A DNA stretch of 64,000 nucleotides from Acidobacteriota bacterium (GTDB lineage: Bacteria; Acidobacteriota; Vicinamibacteria; Vicinamibacterales; CAVVIG01). This document shows positions 3,755 through 62,816 of this stretch, one piece after another. The stretch covers positions 1 through 64,000 of the forward strand of contig QHWJ01000237.1 of assembly GCA_003222535.1 (NCBI GenBank), written 5' to 3'. The translations under genes were made by a program, and so were the position numbers. The notes under the pieces were generated by a model, which saw nothing but the letters and a program-made list of their open reading frames with translations, ran no database searches and was not told the origin of the DNA. Each line of letters starts with the position of its first letter. Position 1 is the stretch's first letter.

Positions 3755-3756
3755 CT

Positions 3757-3802
3757 CAACTCTCAAGTCTCATTGACAGTTGAGAGTTGAGAGTTGACAG
3801 TT
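3757..3802. repeat. Short-unit inverted repeat (caactctcaag / gttgagagttgagagttgacagttg) between convergent genes
   Basis: Direct reading: unit about 7-8 nt (TTGAGAG) in both orientations. Confidence 0.6.
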
Positions 3803-3804
3803 GA

Positions 3805-5969: not shown

Positions 5970-7286
5970 TCAGCGGCGTGCGGGTGATGGTCCGGCGTCC
6001 CGCTCGCCGGTAATCAGACGGACGCGTCGCTGGAGCGAGAAGTAGGCCCAGGCCCACTCGGTCATGACGACGAAGCGGTTGCGAAATCCTATCAGCCAGA
6101 AGATGTGGAGAAAGATCCAGAAGAGCCACGCGAAGAAGCCGGAGATCTTGAGGCCGAACACGTCGCCGACCGCGGATCCCCGGCCGATGGTCGCCATGAT
6201 GCCGTAGTCATGGTAGCGAAACGGCTCGAGCCCCTGCCCCTGGATGGCGCGGCGGATGTTGCGCCCCGCGCGGGCGCCCTGCTGCATCGCCACCTGCGCC
6301 ACGCCGGGCAGCGGCTTGCCATCCTGGACGAACGCGCAGATGTCACCGACGACGAAGATGCCGGGATGCGCGGCGAGGGCGAGCGTGGGCTCCGGCGTCA
6401 CGCGGCCGACGCGGTCCAGCGGCACGCCCAGCGTTTTCGCGAGCGGCGAGGCCGCCACGCCGGCCGCCCAGAGTACTGTCTCGGCGGCGATGCGCTCAAT
6501 GATCTCCGGGGGCCGGGCCCCGGGGTCTGACCCCGGCGCCCGGCTCCGTACTCCGCACGTGACGCCGTCGGCGTCGATGTCGACGACGACCGATTCCGTC
6601 TTCACTTCGATCCCGAGGCGTTCGAGCGCCTGCCGCGCCGCGGCGCGGAGCGGATCGGGAAACGGCCCGAGCACGTGCGGGCTACCCTCGATCAGCACGA
6701 TGCGGGCGGACTCGGGGCGAATGCTCCGGAAATCCTCGACCAGCGATTGCCGCGCGATTTCGGCGAGCGCGCCGGCAAGCTCGACGCCGGTCGGCCCGGC
6801 GCCGACGATCACGAACGTCAGCAGCCGCTGCTGCTTCTCCGGATCCGTCTCGCGCTCCGCCGCTTCGAACGCCAGCAACACACGCCGCCGCATCTCGAGC
6901 GCATCGTCCAGCGTCTTGAGCCCGGGCGCGCGCTCGGCCCACTCGGGATGACCGAAGTACGCATGCGCCGAACCGGTGGCGACAACAAGATAGTCGTACG
7001 ACAACGAATCGTGGTCGAGGATGACGCGCCGTCCGATCGGATCGATCTCGCGCGCCGCGGCCAGCAGGACCTGGACGTTCTTCTGATGCCGCAGAATCCA
7101 TCGGATCGGCGATGCAACATCGCCGGGCGACAGCGACGCTGTGGCGACCTGATAGAGGAGCGGCTGAAAGAGATGGTAGTTGTGGCGATCGAGGAGCGTG
7201 ACCCGAGCGGCGGCGCCGTCGAGCGCGCGCGCCGCATGAAGCCCCGCAAAGCCGCCGCCGAGGATGACGACGTGGGGAGGGTTCAA
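5970..7286 (-). CDS. ndh: NAD(P)/FAD-dependent oxidoreductase, type II NADH dehydrogenase (NDH-2)
   Basis: MNPPHVVILGGGFAGLHAARAL..LLDRHNYHLFQPLLYQVATASLSPGDVASPIRWILR..FVIVGAGPTGVELAGALAEI..FVVGDICAF..VAMQQG. Confidence 0.92.
   Translation of the reverse strand: MNPPHVVILGGGFAGLHAARALDGAAARVTLLDRHNYHLFQPLLYQVATASLSPGDVASPIRWILRHQKNVQVLLAAAREIDPIGRRVILDHDSLSYDYLVVATGSAHAYFGHPEWAERAPGLKTLDDALEMRRRVLLAFEAAERETDPEKQQRLLTFVIVGAGPTGVELAGALAEIARQSLVEDFRSIRPESARIVLIEGSPHVLGPFPDPLRAAARQALERLGIEVKTESVVVDIDADGVTCGVRSRAPGSDPGARPPEIIERIAAETVLWAAGVAASPLAKTLGVPLDRVGRVTPEPTLALAAHPGIFVVGDICAFVQDGKPLPGVAQVAMQQGARAGRNIRRAIQGQGLEPFRYHDYGIMATIGRGSAVGDVFGLKISGFFAWLFWIFLHIFWLIGFRNRFVVMTEWAWAYFSLQRRVRLITGERDAGPSPARR
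6507..6548. repeat. Palindromic GGGTC(A/T)GACCCCGG-type micro-repeat, in-frame in the NDH-2 gene
   Basis: cgggggccgggccccggggtctgaccccggcgcccggctccg; encodes RSRAPGSDPGARPPE. Confidence 0.6.
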
Positions 7287-7315: not shown

Positions 7316-7424
7316 TAACCACGAAAACACGAAGCTCAACGAAGAACGCGAAGAAGGCTTTGTACAAAGAATTCTCTTCGTGATCTTCGTTGGCTTTCGT
7401 GCCTTCGTGGTGGCTTTGTCGCTC
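7316..7424. repeat. Imperfect inverted repeat of CACGAAGxx units (about 48-bp arms)
   Basis: Left arm ACCACGAAAACACGAAGCTCAACGAAGAACGCGAAG...CTTTGTAC; reverse complement of right arm ACCACGAAGGCACGAAAGCCAACGAAGATCACGAAG...CTTTGTAC. Confidence 0.8.
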
Positions 7425-7465: not shown

Positions 7466-9526
7466 ATGCGGATGGCGACGCCAGGCAAACTTGATCGTTC
7501 TGCACGCGAAGCGCTCGGCGGTCCGGTGTCCGTCGTGGAGACGGCGTGCCCGCTCGATTGTCCCGATGCTTGCAGCCTCGCAGTCACGGTGCAGCAGGGC
7601 AAGGTGGTCACGATTGACGGCTCGCACAGGAACCCGGTGACGGACGGCTACATCTGCGCCAAGGTGCGGAAATTCGGCGAGCGCGTCTACGGGCCGGATC
7701 GGTTGCTGTATCCTGCGGTTCGCAGCGGACGCAAAGGCGCAGGCACGTTCAAGCGCGTGTCGTGGGACGAGGCGCTCGAGATGGTGGCCTCCCGGTTCGA
7801 GAAGGCCAAAGCGGAGACCGGCGGCGCCTCGATTCTTCCGTACTCCTACGGAGGATCCAACGGACTGCTCACCCAGGACAACATCGACGCGCAGCTCTGG
7901 CGTCGCTTCGGCACGTCGCGGCTCGCCCGCACGGTGTGCGCGGCGCCGACTGGCGCGGCGAACACGGCGTTATACGGCAAGATGCCGTCAATCACCTATC
8001 AGGACTATCCCGAGGCGCAACTGATCATCCTGTGGGGCGTGAATCCGTCCGCGTCCGGCATTCACCTCGTGCCGTACGTGCGCGAGGCGCAGAAGCGGGG
8101 GGCGACGCTCGTGGTGATCGATCCGCGGACGACGCCGCTGGCACGGTCGGCGAGTGTGCATCTCGCCGTCAAACCCGGCACCGACGTCGTCGTGGCGTTA
8201 GCCATTCACCGATACCTCTTCGCGAACGGGCACGCAGACGAGGCGTTCCTGCGAGCGCACACGCACGGGGCGGGCACGCTTTGCGAGCGCGCCGAGCCAT
8301 GGACGTTCGAGCGGGCGGCCGGCGTCGCCGGCGTCGACCCGGCTCTGCTCGAACGGGTCGCCGAGTTGTACGCCAGGAGCACGCCCGCCCTCGTGCGTTG
8401 CGGGTGGGGCCTCGAGCGGAATCGGAACGGCGGCAACGCCGCGATGGCCGTCCTCGCGCTGCCGGCGGTCGGCGGCAAGTTCGGTGTCCGCGGCGGCGGC
8501 TACTCGATGAGCAACTCCGCGTCGTGGAACATCGACCGCACGTGGATCGGCACGGCCGAGCCCGACACGCGTGTGGTGAACATGAACCATCTCGGGCGCG
8601 CGTTGACGGAGTACGACGACCCGGCCGTCAACGTGCTCTTCGTCTACAACTGCAATCCCGCGGTCACCGTTCCGGATCAGCGGCGCATCCTGCACGGTCT
8701 CGAGCGCGAGGATCTGTTCACGGTCGTCTTCGAGCAGGTGATGACGGATACCGCGTTGTACGCCGACGTCCTGCTGCCGGCGACGACGTTCCTCGAAGGC
8801 TACGATTTCGCGAAGGGCTACGGCCCGATCAGCCTGGATCTCGGGAAGGCGGTCATCGATGCGGTGGGCGAGGCACGCTCCAACGCGGATGTCTTCGGCG
8901 ACCTCTGCTCTCGCCTCGGCCTGTTGACCAGCGATGAGCCGGCGGGCGAGCTCGACCTGCTCGTCCACGTCCTCGACCGGCTGCCGGAGTCAATCGGCTC
9001 CGAGCTGCGCGCGGGCGGACTGCCGTCGCCGCCGTGCGGGTTTGCGCCGATCCAGTTCGTCGACGTCTTTCCGAACACGCCGGACCAGAAAGCCGATCTT
9101 TTCCCCGCCGCGCTGGATCCGGGCACGCCGATGGGCCTCTATCGTTTCCAGCCGGACCCGGCGACCGACCGTTATCCGCTTGCGTTGATCTCTCCCGCGA
9201 GCGAGCGGACGATCAGCTCGACGCTCGGCGAGCTGCCGCGGCCGGACGTCAAGCTCCTCATGCACCCAGACGACGCGCGGGCGAGGGGGCTGGCGGAGAA
9301 CGATCTCGTGCGGATCTTCAACGAGCTCGGCGAGGTGCACTGCACGCTCACCGTCGCGCCCGACGTCCGGCCGGGCACCGTCAGCCTGCCGAAAGGCACC
9401 TGGCGCCGCAGCACGCGGAACAACACGACGGGGACGGCCCTCGTGCCGGACACGCTCACGGATCTCGGCGGCGGGGCATGTTTCAATGACGCTCGCGTTC
9501 AGGTCGGCTCGCTCGCGAACGCATAG
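7466..9526 (+). CDS. Molybdopterin-dependent oxidoreductase (DMSO reductase superfamily)
   Basis: ETACPLDCPDACSLAVTVQQGKVVTIDGSHRNPVTDGYICAKVRKFGERVYGPDRLLYP...FKRVSWDEALE...LPKGTWRRSTRNNTTGTALVPDTLTDLGGGACFNDARVQV. Confidence 0.92.
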   Translation: MRMATPGKLDRSAREALGGPVSVVETACPLDCPDACSLAVTVQQGKVVTIDGSHRNPVTDGYICAKVRKFGERVYGPDRLLYPAVRSGRKGAGTFKRVSWDEALEMVASRFEKAKAETGGASILPYSYGGSNGLLTQDNIDAQLWRRFGTSRLARTVCAAPTGAANTALYGKMPSITYQDYPEAQLIILWGVNPSASGIHLVPYVREAQKRGATLVVIDPRTTPLARSASVHLAVKPGTDVVVALAIHRYLFANGHADEAFLRAHTHGAGTLCERAEPWTFERAAGVAGVDPALLERVAELYARSTPALVRCGWGLERNRNGGNAAMAVLALPAVGGKFGVRGGGYSMSNSASWNIDRTWIGTAEPDTRVVNMNHLGRALTEYDDPAVNVLFVYNCNPAVTVPDQRRILHGLEREDLFTVVFEQVMTDTALYADVLLPATTFLEGYDFAKGYGPISLDLGKAVIDAVGEARSNADVFGDLCSRLGLLTSDEPAGELDLLVHVLDRLPESIGSELRAGGLPSPPCGFAPIQFVDVFPNTPDQKADLFPAALDPGTPMGLYRFQPDPATDRYPLALISPASERTISSTLGELPRPDVKLLMHPDDARARGLAENDLVRIFNELGEVHCTLTVAPDVRPGTVSLPKGTWRRSTRNNTTGTALVPDTLTDLGGGACFNDARVQVGSLANA

Positions 9527-14027: not shown

Positions 14028-15356
14028 TCAAACGGGCGCCTCGGTGAGTACCGGGAATTCCGGATCGATGGCGAATGCGAGGCGCGCGTGCGCTGTACGC
14101 AAGGCTTGCTCGACGCCGGCTGCGCGATCGGCGCGCGCGAAAATAAATCCGAGGTAGCTCGCGCCTTCGGGCAGCGGCAGCAGCAGCTGATCCACCTTCG
14201 CCGTGATGAGGACGTCCTCCACACCGGGCGCCTGACGAGCGGCGTCGATGCCTTGCACGCCGCGGAAGATACCGCGCCGTGGAATCGGGATCATCATGAC
14301 GCCCGACGCATCACTCTCGCGGCGCCACGCGCCGGGATTTTCGCCGAGCGCGTGACGCAGGAGAAGTTCCTCCAACGAGATGGCGGATTGCGGATTGGAG
14401 ATCGCGGATTGGAGACGAAGCGCTCGCGCGCAGAGGCCGCCAATGGGGCGAGCCGCCACCTCCAGTACGAAGACCTCGGCCTGCCCGGATCCTGTCGACG
14501 GGTTCACCCGGCATTCCGCGTGAACGGGACCGTGATGGAGGCCGATGGCGTCGGCGGCGCTGGCCACGGTGGAAACGATCCGGGTCTGTACGTCCGCCGG
14601 GGCGGATGACGGGGTGACGTAAATCGTCTCCTCGAAGAATGGGCCGTCCAGCGGGTCGGGCTTGTCGAAGATCGCGAGCACGTTCAACGCGCCGCGATGC
14701 AGCAGCCCTTCAACCGCGTACTCGCGTCCGGGGATGAAACCCTCGACCAGCACCGTGTCGTGCGCTTCGTTGCGCTCGGCGCGAACCTCGCGCGTCCGCA
14801 TGAGCGCGCGAAGGCGTTCGAGCGCCGCGCGAAACGTCGACGGATCATCCGCGCGCATCACCCCTCGGCTCCCCGAGAGGGCCACAGGCTTCACGATGCA
14901 CGGATAGGTCAATGGTGCCCTGTCAAGGGCTGAGGGCTGGGGGCTGAGGGCTGAGGACTGAGGGTCGATGGCCACTGGAAAGAACCACGGGACCGGCAAG
15001 CCGGCGTCGCGCAAACGTTCGCGCGTGAGCTGTTTGTGCCGCGCAATCGCCGCGGCTTCCGGCGGATGACCCGGCAGGCCGAACGCCTGCGCCACGCGCG
15101 CGCCGATGACCGTGGGCAGATCGCCGACCACCAGCACGCCGTCGATCGGGCGCGCCTTCGCCACCTGGACGATCGCGGCCACCGACGCGTCTTCGTCGTA
15201 GAACCGAATCGGGATTGCGTGGTCCTGCCAGGGATCCTCGATCAGGTGACACCGATCCGTCGCGAAGACGAGATCCACCCCGAGCCGTTCGGCGGCTTCG
15301 CCGAATGCGCGCGTCTGATAGCCGGTCGTCGTCGCCAATAGAAGAACACGTGTCAT
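14028..15356 (-). CDS. ATP-grasp domain carboxylate-amine ligase-like protein
   Basis: TYPCIVKPVALSGSRGVMRADDPSTF...VLVEGFIPGREYAVEGLLHRG...VFVLEVAARPIGGLC; three in-frame micro-repeat segments. Confidence 0.88.
   Translation of the reverse strand: MTRVLLLATTTGYQTRAFGEAAERLGVDLVFATDRCHLIEDPWQDHAIPIRFYDEDASVAAIVQVAKARPIDGVLVVGDLPTVIGARVAQAFGLPGHPPEAAAIARHKQLTRERLRDAGLPVPWFFPVAIDPQSSALSPQPSALDRAPLTYPCIVKPVALSGSRGVMRADDPSTFRAALERLRALMRTREVRAERNEAHDTVLVEGFIPGREYAVEGLLHRGALNVLAIFDKPDPLDGPFFEETIYVTPSSAPADVQTRIVSTVASAADAIGLHHGPVHAECRVNPSTGSGQAEVFVLEVAARPIGGLCARALRLQSAISNPQSAISLEELLLRHALGENPGAWRRESDASGVMMIPIPRRGIFRGVQGIDAARQAPGVEDVLITAKVDQLLLPLPEGASYLGFIFARADRAAGVEQALRTAHARLAFAIDPEFPVLTEAPV
14385..14416. 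repeat. GGATTGCGGATTGGAGATC tandem micro-repeat, in-frame in the ATP-grasp gene
   Basis: gcggattgcggattggagatcgcggattggag; encodes LQSAISNPQSAIS. Confidence 0.65.
14479..14503. repeat. CTGTCGA(C/A)-core micro-repeat, in-frame in the ATP-grasp gene
   Basis: gcctgcccggatcctgtcgacgggtt; encodes NPSTGSGQAE. Confidence 0.6.
14924..14967. repeat. GGGCTGAG tandem micro-repeat, in-frame in the ATP-grasp gene
   Basis: caagggctgagggctgggggctgagggctgaggactgagggtcg; encodes DPQSSALSPQPSALD. Confidence 0.65.
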
Positions 15357-15357
15357 G

Positions 15358-15446
15358 GCTCAGGGCTGAGGGCTAATGGCTATAGGTTGATGGTTGCTGG
15401 TGGTCCATTTCACCATTGCCATCAGCCATGAGCCATCGGCCATGTC
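15358..15446. repeat. Inverted array of GGCTGA/ATGGCT units between the ATP-grasp and radical SAM genes
   Basis: gctcagggctgagggctaatggctataggttgatgg ... ccatcagccatgagccatcggccatg. Confidence 0.65.
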
Positions 15447-18230: not shown

Positions 18231-19070
18231 ATGGCGCTCGAAGAGTACAAACGCAAACGCGACTTCAGGAAGACGCCCGAGCCGGAAGGCACGGTCGCCG
18301 CGAAACAGGCGGAACGTGAACGCTTCTTCTGCGTGCAGAAGCATCTGGCGACCCACTTGCACTACGATTTCCGGCTCGAGCACAACGGCGTCCTGTTGTC
18401 GTGGGCCGTACCGAAGGGCCCGTCGCTCGACCCGACGGTCAAGCGGCTCGCAATGAAAGTTGAAGATCACCCGATCGAGTACGGCGAGTTCGAAGGCGTG
18501 ATCCCCGAGGGCTACGGCGCCGGGATCGTGATGCTCTGGGATCGCGGCACGTGGACGTCCGAGACAGGGGATGTCGACCGGGCGCTGACGAAGGGCGACC
18601 TGAAGCTCACGCTGAACGGCTACAAGCTGAAAGGCTCGTGGGTCCTGGTGCGGACCGGCGGGCGCTATGCCCGTGCGCGAGGCGGCGGCGATCGATCGTG
18701 GTTGCTGATCAAGCACCGCGACGACTGGGCGGGTGATCTCGACATCACCGAGTTCGCGCCGCGCAGCGTGAAGAGCGACGGCGACTTCGAGGACATCCTC
18801 GCGGAGGACAACCCCGCGATCTGGCACACGAACCGACCGGCCAAGGGCGGCGAGACCGGTACGATGTTCACCGGGATCATCGAGCGCGCGGCCGCATTGA
18901 AAGCCGCGCGCTCCACAAAGGACACAAAGGTTACAAAGGACACAAAGGTTACAAAGGACACAAAGGTTACCAAGGACACAAAGGTTGCGCGAGAATCAAA
19001 GAAAAAGGCCGTCCCCGCCAGCATGACGTCGAAGACCAAGAGCGGACGGAAACCACCAGGACAGAAGTAG
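18231..19070 (+). CDS. Stand-alone DNA ligase D 3'-phosphoesterase domain protein with repeat-derived basic tail
   Basis: RFFCVQKHLATHLHYDFRLEHNGVLLSWAVPKGPSLDPTVKRLAMKVEDHPIEYGEFEGVIPEGYGAGIVMLWDRGTW; tail TKDTKVTKDTKVTKDTKVTKDTKV. Confidence 0.92.
   Translation: MALEEYKRKRDFRKTPEPEGTVAAKQAERERFFCVQKHLATHLHYDFRLEHNGVLLSWAVPKGPSLDPTVKRLAMKVEDHPIEYGEFEGVIPEGYGAGIVMLWDRGTWTSETGDVDRALTKGDLKLTLNGYKLKGSWVLVRTGGRYARARGGGDRSWLLIKHRDDWAGDLDITEFAPRSVKSDGDFEDILAEDNPAIWHTNRPAKGGETGTMFTGIIERAAALKAARSTKDTKVTKDTKVTKDTKVTKDTKVARESKKKAVPASMTSKTKSGRKPPGQK
18914..18987 (+). repeat. Direct tandem array (ACAAAGGACACAAAGGTT)n within CDS
   Basis: cacaaaggacacaaaggttacaaaggacacaaaggttacaaaggacacaaaggttaccaaggacacaaaggtt; 18-bp period. 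Confidence 0.85.
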
Positions 19071-24161: not shown

Positions 24162-25024
24162 GAAAAGCGCTTGTCATGGCTAATGGCTCAGGGCAAATGG
24201 CTAGCTCGTCCGGTAGCCATCGGCGATCAGCCATCAGCCATGTCTCGGCACTCGTCGTTGTGGCCCTCGTCTTTGCGCTCGCGCCCCTCCGTGCCGCGGA
24301 CCCGCTCCCCGAGCTCACTCAGCCAGTGAACGACTTCGCGAGGGTCATCGATCCTGAAAGCGCCCGGGAGATGGACCGCATGATTCGCGCGCTGCAGGCC
24401 GCGACCGGCGACGTCGTTGTCGTGGCGACAGTCCCGACGATCGAGCCGTTCGGTGACATCGTCGAGTACGCGGTCAAGCTGTTCGAGAACCACGGCCGCG
24501 GAATCGGGCAGAAAGGCAAGAACAACGGCGTGCTGACCGTGCTCGCGGTGAAGGAGCGGCGCGTCCGGGTCGAGGTCGGCTACGACCTCGAGCAGTGGAT
24601 CACCGATGGGTTCGCCGGCGAGACGAGCCGCGAGCACATGGCACCGGAGTTCAGAAACGGCCGCTACGGCGCGGGCCTGCGCGCCGGAACGGAGCGCATC
24701 ATCGGACGCATCGCGCAGGGAAGGAACGTCACCCTCGAAGGCGTGCGCGTGCCGCGCGAGACCACGGGCGATCGCGGCATGCCTGTACCGGTCTCGATCC
24801 CGTTCCTGATCTTCATCGCCATCCTGATCATCAGCCGCATCGGCGGCGGTGGGGGCCGGGGCCGGCGCTTCTGGGGCGGCGGAGGCTGGAGCGGATGGTC
24901 GAGCGGCGTGGGACCTTTCGGCGGCGGCTGGAGTGGCGGCGCGGGTGGAGGTGGAGGGTTCGGCGGCGGATTCGGCGGTTTTGGCGGCGGCCGGAGCGGC
25001 GGGGGCGGCGGCGCGAGTTGGTAG
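24146..25024 (+). CDS. TPM domain (DUF477) protein with Gly-rich C-terminus
   Basis: LTQPVNDFARVIDPESAREMDRMIRALQAATGDVVVVATVPTIEPFGDIVEYAVKLFENHGRGIGQKGKNNGVLTVLAVKERRVRVEVGYDLEQ..WITDGFAG. Confidence 0.88.
   Translation: MELTLRKALVMANGSGQMASSSGSHRRSAISHVSALVVVALVFALAPLRAADPLPELTQPVNDFARVIDPESAREMDRMIRALQAATGDVVVVATVPTIEPFGDIVEYAVKLFENHGRGIGQKGKNNGVLTVLAVKERRVRVEVGYDLEQWITDGFAGETSREHMAPEFRNGRYGAGLRAGTERIIGRIAQGRNVTLEGVRVPRETTGDRGMPVPVSIPFLIFIAILIISRIGGGGGRGRRFWGGGGWSGWSSGVGPFGGGWSGGAGGGGGFGGGFGGFGGGRSGGGGGASW
24174..24243. repeat. Inverted ATGGCT/AGCCAT micro-repeat inside the TPM gene signal-peptide region
   Basis: catggctaatggctcagggcaaatggctagc ... ggtagccatcggcgatcagccatcagccatg. Confidence 0.7.
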
Positions 25025-28199: not shown

Positions 28200-28394
28200 G
28201 GCACCGCTGAAGCGGTGCCCTACGTACGGGGGCGCAGCGTGGCACCGCTGAAGCGGTGCCCTACGTACGAAGTGCGTATGGCGTCGCGCGAGGCTGCAAT
28301 GCGTTCGTACGTACGGCGCAGCTTTAGCCGTGCCGCATGTAGGGCGCGGCTTTAGCCGTGCCGTACGGAGGGCGTAGCTTCAGCCGTGCCGCAC
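28200..28394. repeat. Cluster of about five REP-like hairpins between convergent genes
   Basis: Exact 28-bp duplicate ggcaccgctgaagcggtgccctacgtac at 28200-28227 and 28241-28268, followed by three opposite-oriented copies (..ctttagccgtgccgcatgtagggcgcggctttagccgtgccgtacggagggcgtagcttcagccgtgcc). Confidence 0.9.
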
Positions 28395-28435
28395 GTGGGC
28401 CACGCACGAAGGACGGAGGACCAAGGACTCGAGCT

Positions 28436-30091
28436 CTAGCGCCTCGGAATCAGCGTGAGCGTCACCTCGGCGTTCGCCTGAACGGCGCGGTCGCTGAACA
28501 CGAGTGCGAAGGAGTCGCCGGCGGCCCAGATCTGTGCGAGATCAGAAAAGTGCGCGCTTTCCGGCGACCCTGCCTGCCCCGGTGCGTTGATCGCGACCGA
28601 ACGATCCCAGTCCGCGGCGTCGAAGGTCGCGCTGAAAGGCGCCCCGGCGTGGGCGCTCGGCGTCAGGGGCCCGACGTTGAACCGTTGTCGTGCGGCGTCG
28701 GTGATGCCGAGCGGATGTGCGAAAACCGCCGCGTCGCTCTGCTGTGCCGGAAGGGCCGCCGCGGGAGCCGCAGTATTGAAGGCGTGCGGCAGATCGTCCA
28801 GTATCCGCCAGCCGGTCCACTCCGACGCTCGGCGGATGGGCACCAGCGCGGCGACTTGAAACCCCCTATTGTGGTCCACGTCCGAATAGAGGATCTTCCG
28901 CGCCGGCATTTTCCATCGTGCGGCGGCTTCGCGGAATTCCGTCCAGGAGCGCGCGCGATCGATGGCCAGCGCGCCCAATTCCGCCGCCGCGCCGGGCTCC
29001 ATTCCGCTCCACCGCACGGTGAACGCCAGGTTCCGCGCGCGGTCCGACGCGACGACAACGCCGTGAGGCGTGTGCTCGATGTCGAAGACGAACGGCTTCG
29101 AACGGCCCTTGACGACGATCGGCTCCTTGACGATCTCGCGAGTCGATTGACCCACCGGCTCGGTGTACACGTCCTCGGTGTCCGCATCGAACGGCGCGGG
29201 ATTCCATGCGATCCGCTCGTTGTGACCGATTGCAACGCCCGGCAGCCACGGGGACGTGGCGCCGATGACGTTCCATCGGGGCGCATTGAGGTGCACCAGA
29301 TACCGGGGCGATGGGTGAGCGAGCGTTCGCGCAGGCTTGGGCGTCGCGGCGTCGGTCGCGTCCGCCTTCAGGCGAACCTGGACGGGTGCGGCGAGGCCTA
29401 CAAAAAACGGCGGCGTCCCGACGCGCCGGATCGCGTCGACGACGACACCGCTCAAGCGCTTTCGGGATGTCTCATCGATCGCATCGCCGCTCGCCACGAA
29501 GGCGTCGGTCCGGTTCAACAGGTCGGCGGGCGCCCAGAGCTCGGGCTTCCATCCCGCGAGGACGAATTCCTCCGGCGGCCGCTCGCGGGCGAGCGTCACC
29601 CATGCGTTGATACCGCCGACGAACGCGGCCGCGATCGTCTTCGCGTCCGGCCCGTAGCTCGCCCACTCCGCGTTGAGATCACCGCGGTACTGTACACGCC
29701 GCGTCATCGCGTCGCGGTCGACGAAGTTCGCGCCGAGCACTTCGGACAGCCGTCCCTGCACTGATCGCCGCCACAGATCCATCTGGAACAACCGGTCCTG
29801 CGCCTGGACGAAGCCTTGCCCGAAGAAAAGATCGTCCTGGTTCTGCGCGTAGATATGCGGCACCCCCCACTTGTCGCGGACGATGCGGACGGGGGCGGAG
29901 AGTCCGGCGGTCTCGAACGTGCCCGAGACTCGAGCCACCAGCGGCGGCGACGGGGGTGGCGCGCGACGGCAGGCGTCGAAGACACAGAGTGGACAGAGGA
30001 CACAGAGAATCAAAAGCCACGGAGACACCGAGACACGGAGATATTTCGAACAGAAGATCAAAAGATCAGGAGTTGTGTCGTTCTTCAACAA
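28436..30091 (-). CDS. Penicillin acylase family protein (start uncertain)
   Basis: APVRIVRDKWGVPHIYAQNQDDLFFGQGFVQAQDRLFQMDLWRR...NVIGATSPWLPGVAIGHNERIAWNPAPFDADTEDVY. Confidence 0.9.
   Translation of the reverse strand: MLKNDTTPDLLIFCSKYLRVSVSPWLLILCVLCPLCVFDACRRAPPPSPPLVARVSGTFETAGLSAPVRIVRDKWGVPHIYAQNQDDLFFGQGFVQAQDRLFQMDLWRRSVQGRLSEVLGANFVDRDAMTRRVQYRGDLNAEWASYGPDAKTIAAAFVGGINAWVTLARERPPEEFVLAGWKPELWAPADLLNRTDAFVASGDAIDETSRKRLSGVVVDAIRRVGTPPFFVGLAAPVQVRLKADATDAATPKPARTLAHPSPRYLVHLNAPRWNVIGATSPWLPGVAIGHNERIAWNPAPFDADTEDVYTEPVGQSTREIVKEPIVVKGRSKPFVFDIEHTPHGVVVASDRARNLAFTVRWSGMEPGAAAELGALAIDRARSWTEFREAAARWKMPARKILYSDVDHNRGFQVAALVPIRRASEWTGWRILDDLPHAFNTAAPAAALPAQQSDAAVFAHPLGITDAARQRFNVGPLTPSAHAGAPFSATFDAADWDRSVAINAPGQAGSPESAHFSDLAQIWAAGDSFALVFSDRAVQANAEVTLTLIPRR
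29351..29392. repeat. VRLKADAT-encoding micro-repeat, in-frame in penicillin acylase 1
   Basis: gtcggtcgcgtccgccttcaggcgaacctggac; encodes VQVRLKADATDA. Confidence 0.5.
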
Positions 30092-30190
30092 GAACCTCCT
30101 GGCCTCCTGATCTCCTGTTCAAGAAAACCCTCTGCGTCTCTGTGGCTGTTTCGGTCTCTGTGATCTCACGAGTCTCAGTGTTCTACACTG
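29968..30190. repeat. Long imperfect inverted repeat of ACACAGAG/ACGGAG(ACAC) units covering the 5' end of penicillin acylase 1
   Basis: gacacagagtggacagaggacacagag..gccacggagacaccgagacacggag ... aggagttgtgtcgttcttcaacaagaacctcctg ... ctctgcgtctctgtggctgtttcggtctctgtgatctc. Confidence 0.8.
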
Positions 30191-30690: not shown

Positions 30691-30759
30691 GGCGGGTAAC
30701 CCATGCGACCTACCCGACCCACGCGACCTACTCGACCCACCAGACCTACTTGACCTCGC
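30688..30759. repeat. 9-bp periodic array (CGACCTACC/CGACCCACG-type) between convergent genes
   Basis: tagggcgggtaacccatgcgacctacccgacccacgcgacctactcgacccaccagacctacttgacctcg. Confidence 0.8.
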
Positions 30760-34391: not shown

Positions 34392-34470
34392 GAGGTGGGA
34401 GGCGCGAAGTCTGAAGTCCGAGCGTTTCAGACTTCAGACTTCAGCCTTCAGACTTCAGACTTTAAGTTAA
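34392..34470. repeat. TTCAGAC(TTCAGAC)n micro-repeat with inverted copy between convergent genes
   Basis: gaagtctgaagtccgagcgtttcagacttcagacttcagccttcagacttcagactttaag. Confidence 0.75.
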
Positions 34471-35766: not shown

Positions 35767-35918
35767 ACCCAACCTACTCGACCTATCCGACCTACACAAC
35801 CTACCCAACCTACCCGACCTACCTGACCTACCCGGCCTACCCAACCTACCCGACCTATCCGACCTATCCGACCTATCCGACCTATCCGACCTACTGGACC
35901 TACTGGACCTGCCTGACC
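35767..35918. repeat. 9-bp periodic array (CCGACCTAT/CCTACCCGA) running into the stop codon of the M20 gene
   Basis: acctactcgacctatccgacctacacaacctacccaacctacc...cgacctatccgacctatccgacctatccgacctactggacctactggacctg. Confidence 0.9.
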
Positions 35919-42791: not shown

Positions 42792-42835
42792 GTTGTCGTT
42801 CCCCGGTCGCTCGCCAGGCTAAAGCGCTCCGATCC

Positions 42836-42884
42836 CCACCCGACCCACGCGACCCACCTGACCCACCTGACCCACCTGAGGGTC
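42836..42884. repeat. 9-bp periodic array (CGACCCACC/TGACCCACC) between divergent genes
   Basis: ccacccgacccacgcgacccacctgacccacctgacccacctgagggtc. Confidence 0.85.
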
Positions 42885-42909
42885 GTTGGTCGACTGTAAA
42901 CTAGGTGAC

Positions 42910-46108: not shown

Positions 46109-46346
46109 CAGGGCGGATAGGCCAGGGAGGTCACATAGGTCGGGTAGGCTAGGTGGGTCTGGTAGGTCGGGTGGGTCGGGTAGGTCGCGTAGCGCAGTCG
46201 GTCGGGTAGGGCAGGTAGGTCAGGTGGGTCAGGTGGGTCGCGTAGCGCAGTCGGTCGGGTAGGGCAGGTAGGTCAGGTGGGTCGCGTAGGGCACGTCGGT
46301 CGGGTAGGACAGGTAGGTCGGGTCGGTCGCGTAGGACGGGTGGGAT
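46109..46346. repeat. Long 9-bp periodic array (GGTCGGGTA/GGTCAGGTG...) with a 54-bp (6 x 9) higher-order duplication, between convergent genes
   Basis: ggtcgcgtagcgcagtcggtcgggtagggcaggtaggtcaggtgggtc occurs at 46183 and 46237 (54-bp spacing). Confidence 0.92.
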
Positions 46347-51872: not shown

Positions 51873-51962
51873 CAGGATCGGCGATCGAAAGATCGGGTGA
51901 TCGGCGATCTTGACGGTGATCTTAGCCTACTTCGCCGATCATCCGATTGCCCGATCGCCGAT
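51873..51962. repeat. Inverted array of GATCGGC units
   Basis: caggatcggcgatcgaaagatcgggtgatcggcgatcttgacggtgatc...cgccgatcatccgattgcccgatcgccgatg. Confidence 0.75.
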
Positions 51963-52807: not shown

Positions 52808-52886
52808 GGGACCGGGGACTAGGGGACTGGGGGACTCAGCTACTAGCGCGCAGTCTATAGTCCCCAGGTCCCCAGTCCCCAATCCT
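52808..52886. repeat. Inverted GGGGACT / AGTCCCC micro-repeat array
   Basis: gggaccggggactaggggactgggggactcagctactagcgcgcagtctatagtccccaggtccccagtccccaatcc. Confidence 0.85.
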
Positions 52887-60484: not shown

Positions 60485-60562
60485 TGTCGGGGACTGGGGA
60501 CTGGGGACTGGGGACTGAAGAATCGCTCGTCCTTAGTCCCCTAGTCCCCTAGTCCCCCGAGA
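60485..60562. repeat. Inverted GGGGACT / AGTCCCC array, reaching the ferredoxin stop codon
   Basis: cggggactggggactggggactggggactgaagaatcgctcgtccttagtcccctagtcccctagtcccccgag. Confidence 0.9.
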
Positions 60563-62650: not shown

Positions 62651-62816
62651 CCAAGGACGTTTTAAAGACGATGCCAAGGACACAGAGGGAACAAAGGACG
62701 CAGAGGACAGAACAGCGCGCGCCGCGAGATGTCTGGGCAGGGCATCTGTTCAACCTGGCGATCGCCCTCTCCGTTGTCCCCTTTGTGTCCTCTGTCCCCT
62801 TTGTGTCCTTTGTGAC
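62651..62816. repeat. Inverted array of ACAAAGGAC/ACAGAGG units over the 5' end of the next gene
   Basis: atgccaaggacacagagggaacaaaggacgcagaggacagaacag ... gttgtcccctttgtgtcctctgtcccctttgtgtcctttgtgac. Confidence 0.85.

What the first reader, a model, noticed from the sequence alone, without database searches (positions are those of the whole stretch)
7316..7424. General syntax: inverted arrays of 7-9 nt units, a different unit at each locus
Many gene gaps contain [unit]n - spacer - [unit']n with a locus-specific unit: TTGAGAG (3757), CACGAAG (7316), GGCTGA (15358), ATGGCT (24174), ACACAGAG (29968), TTCAGAC (34392), GATCGGC (51873), GGGGACT (52808, 60485), ACAAAGGAC (62651). Unit length, degenerate tandem structure and inverted arrangement are shared although sequences are unrelated. 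This suggests a common generating process, such as templated hairpin synthesis or slippage at gene ends, rather than copies of one mobile element.
Basis: partly seen in the sequence, partly recalled or inferred. Interest (0 to 1): 0.75.

Follow-up and report, generated by a model that had tools for sequence, protein, structure and literature searches.

The report
Families of dispersed inverted short-repeat arrays
Roughly a fifth to a quarter of the gaps between genes in this bacterium hold little hairpin-shaped arrays built from 7-9-letter DNA words; they are not a new word made on the spot at each place but about a dozen families of small elements that appear to have been copied around the genome, always with the same word orientation, and one of the families turns up in at least ten phyla of bacteria.

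Summary
The arrays are real. In 1.11 Mb of the host genome 141 of 551 gene gaps hold a degenerate tandem array against 0-3 in Markov controls, and the period is confined to 7, 8 and 9 nt. 'A different unit at each locus' is wrong: units fall into about 12 families, each at many loci; the sites at 7316, 29968 and 62651 are variants of one superfamily (CAC-R-R-A-G), and 15358/24174 and 52808/60485 share units. Local generation is not favoured. Inverted pairs always point the same strand inward (32/32 here). Unit order is shared between loci but not mirrored between the arms of one locus. The CACGAAG element has a conserved outer sequence (CNAAATGCA); two other families share spacers. No reverse transcriptase was found. 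Exact runs of two heptamers occur 76-79 times here and in 1-2 of 246 other genomes of the phylum. I conclude: dispersed, lineage-specific families of short palindromic elements (REP/MITE-like in behaviour, mover unknown), reworked by slippage and tolerated mainly at gene 3' ends. The AACC-(CACGAAnn)n...GGTT family spans at least ten phyla. Heptamer arrays with inverted pairs are known from Xanthomonas; many families in one genome, with uniform polarity and rapid turnover, are the new part.

The parts
7317..7412 (.). CACGAAG element: AACC(ACGAAnn(n)C)4 arm, spacer GGCTTTGTACAAAGAATT, inverted arm ending TTCGTGGT; complete copies with the same spacer elsewhere
   Evidence: I2, 37-nt arms 81% complementary; 96%, 90% and 90% copies in C63, C225, C301
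7288..7314 (+). adjacent direct array of the GTTCAGC heptamer
3755..3804 (.). inverted array, CTCAACT/TTGAGAG heptamer, fills a convergent gap
15353..15444 (.). inverted array, GATGGCT heptamer, ends CATGGC/GCCATG
   Evidence: same family at the same gap in relative G016
24174..24242 (.). inverted array, GATGGCT heptamer
   Evidence: relative G014 has GGTTGCT at the same gap
18914..18986 (+). direct array, CACAAAGGA nonamer (CAC superfamily)
29979..30170 (.). cluster of CACAGAG/CACGGAG (8-9 nt) arrays with a CCTCCTG/CAGGAG hairpin; CAC superfamily
   Evidence: CACGGAG arrays at the same gap in G014 and G016
30699..30745 (.). direct array, GACCYACCY nonamer
34404..34463 (.). inverted array, AAGTCTG heptamer, convergent gap
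35767..35893 (.). direct array, ACCCGACCT nonamer, 14 units
42835..42879 (.). direct array, GACCCACCT nonamer; other genera carry different heptamers at this gap
46110..46345 (.). direct arrays, TAGGTCGGG nonamer with higher-order 53-nt period
51873..51962 (.). inverted array, GATCGGC
   Evidence: (I3)
52808..52886 (.). inverted array, GGGGACT (7/8 nt)
   Evidence: TCCCTAA in G014 and ATTCCGC in G016 at the same gap
60485..60558 (.). inverted array, GGGGACT / TAGTCCCC
62673..62815 (.). inverted array, ACAAAGGAC/CACAGAGG nonamer (CAC superfamily)
   Evidence: I1, I5

Best explanation
The arrays are about a dozen families of short (about 50-200 bp) non-coding, hairpin-forming elements. Each inverted element is compact: a 5' arm of 3-6 degenerate 7-9-nt units, a short spacer, and an inverted 3' arm. 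Ready-made elements are copied to new places in the genome (shown indirectly: uniform polarity, shared unit order between loci, shared ends or spacers, many loci per family, lineage-specific bursts). Once placed, an array grows, shrinks and drifts by slippage and by exchange or nesting with other arrays (shown: neighbouring units most alike; rapid change between sister species). Elements persist where they do least harm, mostly between convergent genes and after stop codons and rarely in shared promoter regions (enrichment shown, tolerance inferred). What moves them is not identified: no reverse transcriptase domain was found and the one REP-type transposase gene sits among a different palindrome, so mobilisation in trans by an unrecognised enzyme, or by recombination or template switching between arrays, is inferred. 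The CACGAAG element at 7317-7412 belongs to a family with AACC...GGTT termini found in at least ten bacterial phyla.
For: Multi-copy families. Full-length copies of the focal element with the same spacer in unrelated flanks. Conserved outer motif CNAAATGCA in 15 of 24 CAC elements, with information dropping to zero beyond it. F and H families share spacer sequence. Inverted-pair polarity 32/32 same in own genome, 8/8 in relatives, 10/12 in other phyla. Between-locus unit order mean percentile 0.60 over 770 pairs versus 0.536 within locus; AAGTCTG elements have a distinguishable left arm (AAGTCTGAAGTnnG...) and right arm at five loci. Lineage-specific bursts: 79 and 76 exact four-unit matches here, in 1 and 2 of 246 other genomes; other genera have their own units. 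Nested and replaced arrays at orthologous gaps of three Herpetosiphon species with 79-98% flank identity. Slippage signature. Gap-class bias. Cross-phylum AACC-CACGAA pattern in 120 or more stretches, about 0.5 expected by chance (my calculation), with unrequired TTCGTGGT right termini in 35 of 43.
Against: No clean empty/occupied site pair and no target-site duplication was demonstrated; the nearest relatives are other genera. Families AAGTCTG, GGGGACT, GATGGCT and GGATTGC show little or no conserved sequence outside the units, which is unusual for transposed elements. No mover gene was found. Uniform polarity could also come from a functional constraint on the hairpin strand: the inward arm is purine-rich in 13 of 15 loose families, though variants of the CAC superfamily are not independent. 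Many arrays are direct only.
Confidence: 0.6

Rival explanations
1. Local generation: arrays arise independently at gene ends by slippage, and the second arm by snap-back or template-switch synthesis, so that each locus makes its own unit.
For: Neighbouring units are most alike; period restricted to 7-9 nt; arrays recur at the same orthologous gap with different units (joint 14 vs 9.6 expected, P = 0.026), with period 8 kept at L028:16822 and L022:3718 while the unit changed in both arms.
Against: Same units at dozens of loci; polarity 32/32; arms not mirrored; shared spacers and ends in CAC, F and H families.
Confidence: 0.15
2. Functional hairpins (terminators or 3'-end protectors) kept by selection, with the unit sequence itself nearly neutral.
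For: Enrichment in convergent gaps and depletion in divergent gaps after length adjustment; inverted over direct neighbouring pairs 48 to 19; strong predicted hairpins, -49.2 and -55.0 kcal/mol; recurrence at orthologous gaps.
Against: Many arrays are direct only; no T-run visible beside the CAC elements; variable unit positions do not pair in register; orthologous gaps in relatives lack arrays in 22 of 37 comparisons in which this genome has one.
Confidence: 0.15
3. Telomerase-like or retron-type reverse transcription of short templates (DRT10-like tandem-repeat synthesis with a 9-nt unit, PMC12632851) writes the arrays.
For: Unit length 7-9 nt is like that of DRT10 products.
Against: No RVT_1 match in the 95.5%-complete genome, while the control search finds it in E. 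coli and two others; a dozen unrelated units would need a dozen templates.
Confidence: 0.03
4. REP/REPIN system: the arrays are mobilised by the genome's RAYT-like Y1 transposase.
For: One Y1_Tnp gene, C216:39994-40323; palindromic dispersed elements.
Against: The gene is flanked by four copies of GTCCGGCTTCAGCCGGACCT, a different palindrome, and not by any heptamer array.
Confidence: 0.05

Closest known systems
GGGAATC / GGGGA(C/T)T heptameric intergenic repeats of Xanthomonas and Nostoc (Rehm et al. 2015, PMC4692102)
   Same: Degenerate heptamer arrays in gene gaps; in Xanthomonas 70-75 close pairs in inverted, convergent orientation; GGGGACT is one of the Nostoc units and also a unit here.
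   Different: One unit type per genome there, selected for G-quadruplex potential; here about a dozen unrelated units of 7, 8 and 9 nt in one genome, with uniform polarity and shared unit order.
STRR heptanucleotide repeats of heterocystous cyanobacteria (three units in Calothrix, cited in PMC4692102; other details from memory)
   Same: Several heptamer families in one genome, intergenic.
   Different: Described as direct tandem repeats; inverted elements with polarity and unit turnover between genera were not part of what I could read.
TAACTGA heptamer repeats of marine Beggiatoaceae (PMC4679880)
   Same: Intergenic heptamers with a scattered distribution across phyla; no transfer mechanism evident.
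   Different: Single unit, directly upstream of start codons, one inverted repeat only; here 3' ends are favoured.
REP/REPIN elements (PMC3116915, PMC3733652)
   Same: Short palindromic dispersed non-coding elements in gene gaps.
   Different: REPs are single 20-40-bp palindromes with a GTAG or CGTC tag and (from general knowledge) a RAYT partner; here arms are tandem 7-9-nt arrays and no partner was found.
MITEs
   Same: Small, inverted-repeat, non-autonomous, multi-copy.
   Different: No target-site duplication and no parental transposon ends identified.

Membership tests
Heptameric intergenic SSRs (PMC4692102 type) | 7-nt degenerate tandem units enriched in intergenic DNA over random sequence | tested here: met
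   141/551 gaps vs 0-3 Markov; 11-19 in length-matched coding segments
Heptameric intergenic SSRs (PMC4692102 type) | inverted paired arrays | tested here: met
   44 inverted pairs in 1.11 Mb
Heptameric intergenic SSRs (PMC4692102 type) | single G-rich unit per genome with G-quadruplex potential | tested here: not met
   about 12 families, most not G-run units
REP/REPIN with RAYT | RAYT gene flanked by the element | tested here: not met
   single Y1 gene flanked by GGCTTCAGCC palindromes, not by arrays
REP/REPIN with RAYT | conserved tag 5' of the hairpin | tested here: inconclusive
   CAC elements carry CNAAATGCA on one side (15/24); most other families carry none
MITE | terminal inverted repeats matching an autonomous transposon | not tested
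   no parental element searched for beyond Y1 and RT domains
MITE | target-site duplication | tested here: inconclusive
   no consistent direct repeat seen by eye next to the CAC elements; no empty site available
DRT10/telomerase-like RT arrays | reverse transcriptase gene present | tested here: not met
   no PF00078 match in own genome
Intrinsic terminator | hairpin followed by a T-run | tested here: not met
   hairpin present, but flanks of the CAC elements show no T-run after the stem (by eye)

The most novel reading that the evidence does not exclude
Bacteria of many phyla share a dedicated but unrecognised activity that writes or copies DNA in 7-9-nt steps with one fixed strand polarity into inverted arrays, using different unit sequences in different lineages; the shared syntax, sharp 7-9-nt period, uniform polarity, purine-rich inward arm and concerted unit change in both arms at orthologous gaps would all follow from it.
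Probability: 0.12. Interest if true: 0.88.

Novelty: new variant of a known kind. Interest (0 to 1): 0.6.

Why it matters
Heptamer arrays have been reported as single-unit curiosities in Xanthomonas, Nostoc and Beggiatoa. Here one genome holds about a dozen unrelated families with one syntax and one polarity rule, turning over at genus level, and one family (AACC-CACGAA...GGTT) crosses at least ten phyla. This turns scattered reports into a class with testable rules: what sets the 7-9-nt step, why one strand always faces inward, and how a 25-base word can be written nearly 80 times in one genome and be almost absent from its relatives. It also matters for annotation and intergenic comparison, because the arrays cover about 6% of the sampled intergenic DNA.

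Tried and rejected
Arm mirroring by unit-order permutation: negative with a strong positive control. RAYT as mover: the gene exists but carries other palindromes. RT as writer: none found. Rfam: no match in the window. Plasmid collection with the focal element: no match in distant mode, so no evidence of plasmid carriage. Same-genus genomes for alignable comparison: none held for G010 and none appeared for the window's genus among the relatives; Herpetosiphon species were used instead. Unit clustering by local alignment of repeated consensus over-merged unrelated units and was replaced by exact doublets. The 'reversed pattern' control for AAGTCTG is not a control, because the reversed word is a rotation of itself. 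A literature search for CACGAAG found nothing relevant. Family strands were first labelled by eye; one search repeats the polarity test without that choice.

Full report
Setting. The window is contig C325 of an 8.06-Mb, 450-contig, 66% G+C genome, 95.5% complete. The matching relatives are other genera of one family, plus a 7.5-Mb single-contig genome of the same order. Twenty of those stretches came from contigs known to carry CACGAAG, 20 were taken blind, and 20 were mixed.

Is it there, and is it more than chance? Yes. In the first 726 kb, 88 of 368 gaps held a tandem array with period 6-10, against about 0.5 in Markov controls of order 1 to 3; 43 had an inverted partner against none. In 1.11 Mb, 141 of 551 gaps had one against 0-3 in controls and 11-19 in coding segments of the same lengths. 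The blind contigs gave 21 of 119. The period spectrum is sharp: 74 arrays at 7 nt, 34 at 8, 38 at 9, 20 at 18 (twice 9), and 0-3 at each of 4-6 and 10-13, with zero in the control. Arrays favour convergent gaps (37/92) over tandem (90/353) and divergent gaps (14/106); the difference survives adjustment for gap length. Extrapolated, the genome should hold some 700-1,000 array-bearing gaps (inference).

What is wrong in the observation. Units are not specific to a locus. Counting exact doublets, AAGTCTG occurs in 11 sampled gaps, GGGGACT in 10, GATGGCT in 8, AAAACACG in 8, GGAATTT in 6, and several others in 3-4. The window's 7316, 18914, 29968 and 62651 arrays are variants of one superfamily, CAC-R-R-A-G with 0-2 extra bases. 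The focal element has copies, including the spacer, at 96%, 90% and 90% identity in three other contigs, and about 45 weaker matches. Its closest copies sit in unrelated flanks.

Anatomy. The unit has a constant core and 1-3 variable positions, for example GAAGT+nn, CACGAA+nn(n), CTCAA+nn. Inverted pairs have spacers from 1 to about 195 nt, most under 35, and outnumber direct neighbours 48 to 19. The predicted RNA hairpins are strong, -49.2 kcal/mol for the focal element and -55.0 for 60485-60558. Some arrays, above all the nonamer GACCYACCY family, are direct only.

Copying or local making? Five tests. (1) Arms are not mirror copies unit by unit: mean percentile 0.525, n = 46, P = 0.55, while mutated mirror copies give 0.93-0.96. 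(2) Unit order is shared between loci of a family, mean percentile 0.60 over 770 pairs (not independent), more than between the two arms of a locus, 0.536; five AAGTCTG loci share a left arm with a variant second unit and a right arm that lacks it. (3) Polarity: with families formed automatically, 32 of 32 non-founder inverted pairs in this genome have the same strand inward as the founder, P = 5e-10; relatives 8/8, other phyla 10/12. (4) Ends: CAC elements carry CNAAATGCA outside one end in 15 of 24 (some rows are overlapping readings of one element) and CCCGG or CCCAG outside the other in 8 of 24, with no information beyond; families F (AATCTGGT) and H (GGACCAA) share spacer sequence, whereas A, B, C and E share little or nothing but the unit. 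(5) Distribution: exact four-unit runs of AAGTCTG and ATGGCTG occur 79 and 76 times here and in 1 and 2 of 246 other genomes of the phylum; other genera have their own multi-locus units (ACCAGCC in G016, AAAGGGC in G010, AACCAGC in G014). Together these favour copying of ready-made inverted arrays within a lineage.

What happens afterwards. Neighbouring units are more alike (0.21 mismatches per base) than units five apart (0.33), the mark of local duplication. In three Herpetosiphon species with 79-98% identical flanks the same gap shows changed unit numbers, replaced arms, and a GGCTNNN hairpin nested in the loop of a CACGAAG element. In 74 orthologous-gap comparisons with other genera, arrays coincide more than expected when both gaps are at least 45 nt (14 vs 9.6, P = 0.026), usually with different units; the unstratified table over all 74 is not significant (P = 0.13). 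Two gaps keep an 8-nt period while the unit differs (AATCTGGT / AATCTGAG / AGGATTTG), the best remaining support for a within-locus homogenising process, though these units also occur at other loci of their own genomes.

Breadth. Record titles include Cyanobacteria, Proteobacteria, Spirochaetes, Chloroflexi, Planctomycetes, Verrucomicrobia/Lentisphaerae/Kiritimatiellae, Acidobacteria, Bacteroidetes, Gemmatimonadetes, Nitrospinota, Cloacimonadota, KSB1 and Latescibacterota. The right terminus was not part of the pattern, yet TTCGTGGT ends 35 of the 43 loci with a second arm, 25 of them as TTCGTGGTT. The same stretches, at most 8 kb each, carry many other 7-mer arrays. Many records are MAGs, so single assignments may be wrong; isolate genomes such as Herpetosiphon aurantiacus carry the pattern too.

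Machinery. No RVT_1 domain was found in the genome. The one Y1 transposase is flanked by four copies of another palindrome, GTCCGGCTTCAGCCGGACCT. The mover is unknown.

Relation to known systems. Rehm et al. (PMC4692102) described GGGAATC arrays in Xanthomonas with 70-75 inverted pairs and GGGGA(C/T)T arrays in Nostoc; MacGregor (PMC4679880) described TAACTGA arrays with a scattered distribution and cites the idea that 7 nt reflects polymerase contact. This genome is the same kind of thing with many unit families, longer periods and a polarity rule. I therefore call it a new variant of a known kind. DRT10 (PMC12632851) makes 9-nt tandem repeats but needs an RT.

Limits. Gene calls are mine; families are short and degenerate; several tests use non-independent pairs; there is no strain-level comparison within the window's species and no expression data. 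Uniform polarity may reflect function rather than descent: the inward arm is purine-rich in 13 of 15 loose families (P = 0.004, but the CAC variants are not independent).

Noticed in passing
G000:C216:39994-40323 (L199 1501-1830), with palindromes at L199 1325, 1369, 1943, 2013: Single RAYT-like Y1 transposase gene flanked on both sides by GTCCGGCTTCAGCCGGACCT palindromes: a separate REP system in this genome.
   Followed up: partly
window 28200-28400: 28-nt tandem/inverted repeat ACGTAGGGCGCAGCTTTAGCCGTGCCGC with GGCACCGCTGAAGCGGTGCC hairpins; looks like a relative of the GGCTTCAGCC palindromes beside the Y1 transposase gene.
   Followed up: no
all inverted pairs: The arm that faces inward (5' arm on both strands) is purine-rich in 13 of 15 loose families and has more G than C in 10 of 14; no explanation.
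   Followed up: partly
L149 421-521 and L131 2006-2097 (Herpetosiphon): Chains of heptamers that change step by step along the array (AGCCAAA, AGCCCAG, AGCCTAC, AACCTGA, ACCCCAG, CCCCTGA, TCCCTGA, TCCCTAC, then TTCTATG).
   Followed up: no
window 42792-42909 and the orthologous gaps in G016 and G010: The downstream-gene end of the gap keeps GACTGTAAACT, possibly a promoter, and the heptamer arrays of the relatives (ACTAACG, CAACTGT) resemble duplicated pieces of it.
   Followed up: no
window 46110-46345: TAGGTCGGG nonamer array with a 53-nt higher-order repeat, direct only; the orthologous gap in G015 is 10 nt.
   Followed up: no
window 5970-7286 (-) and 7466-9526 (+): Genes flanking the focal element: an NDH-2-like pyridine nucleotide-disulphide oxidoreductase and a molybdopterin oxidoreductase.
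   Followed up: yes
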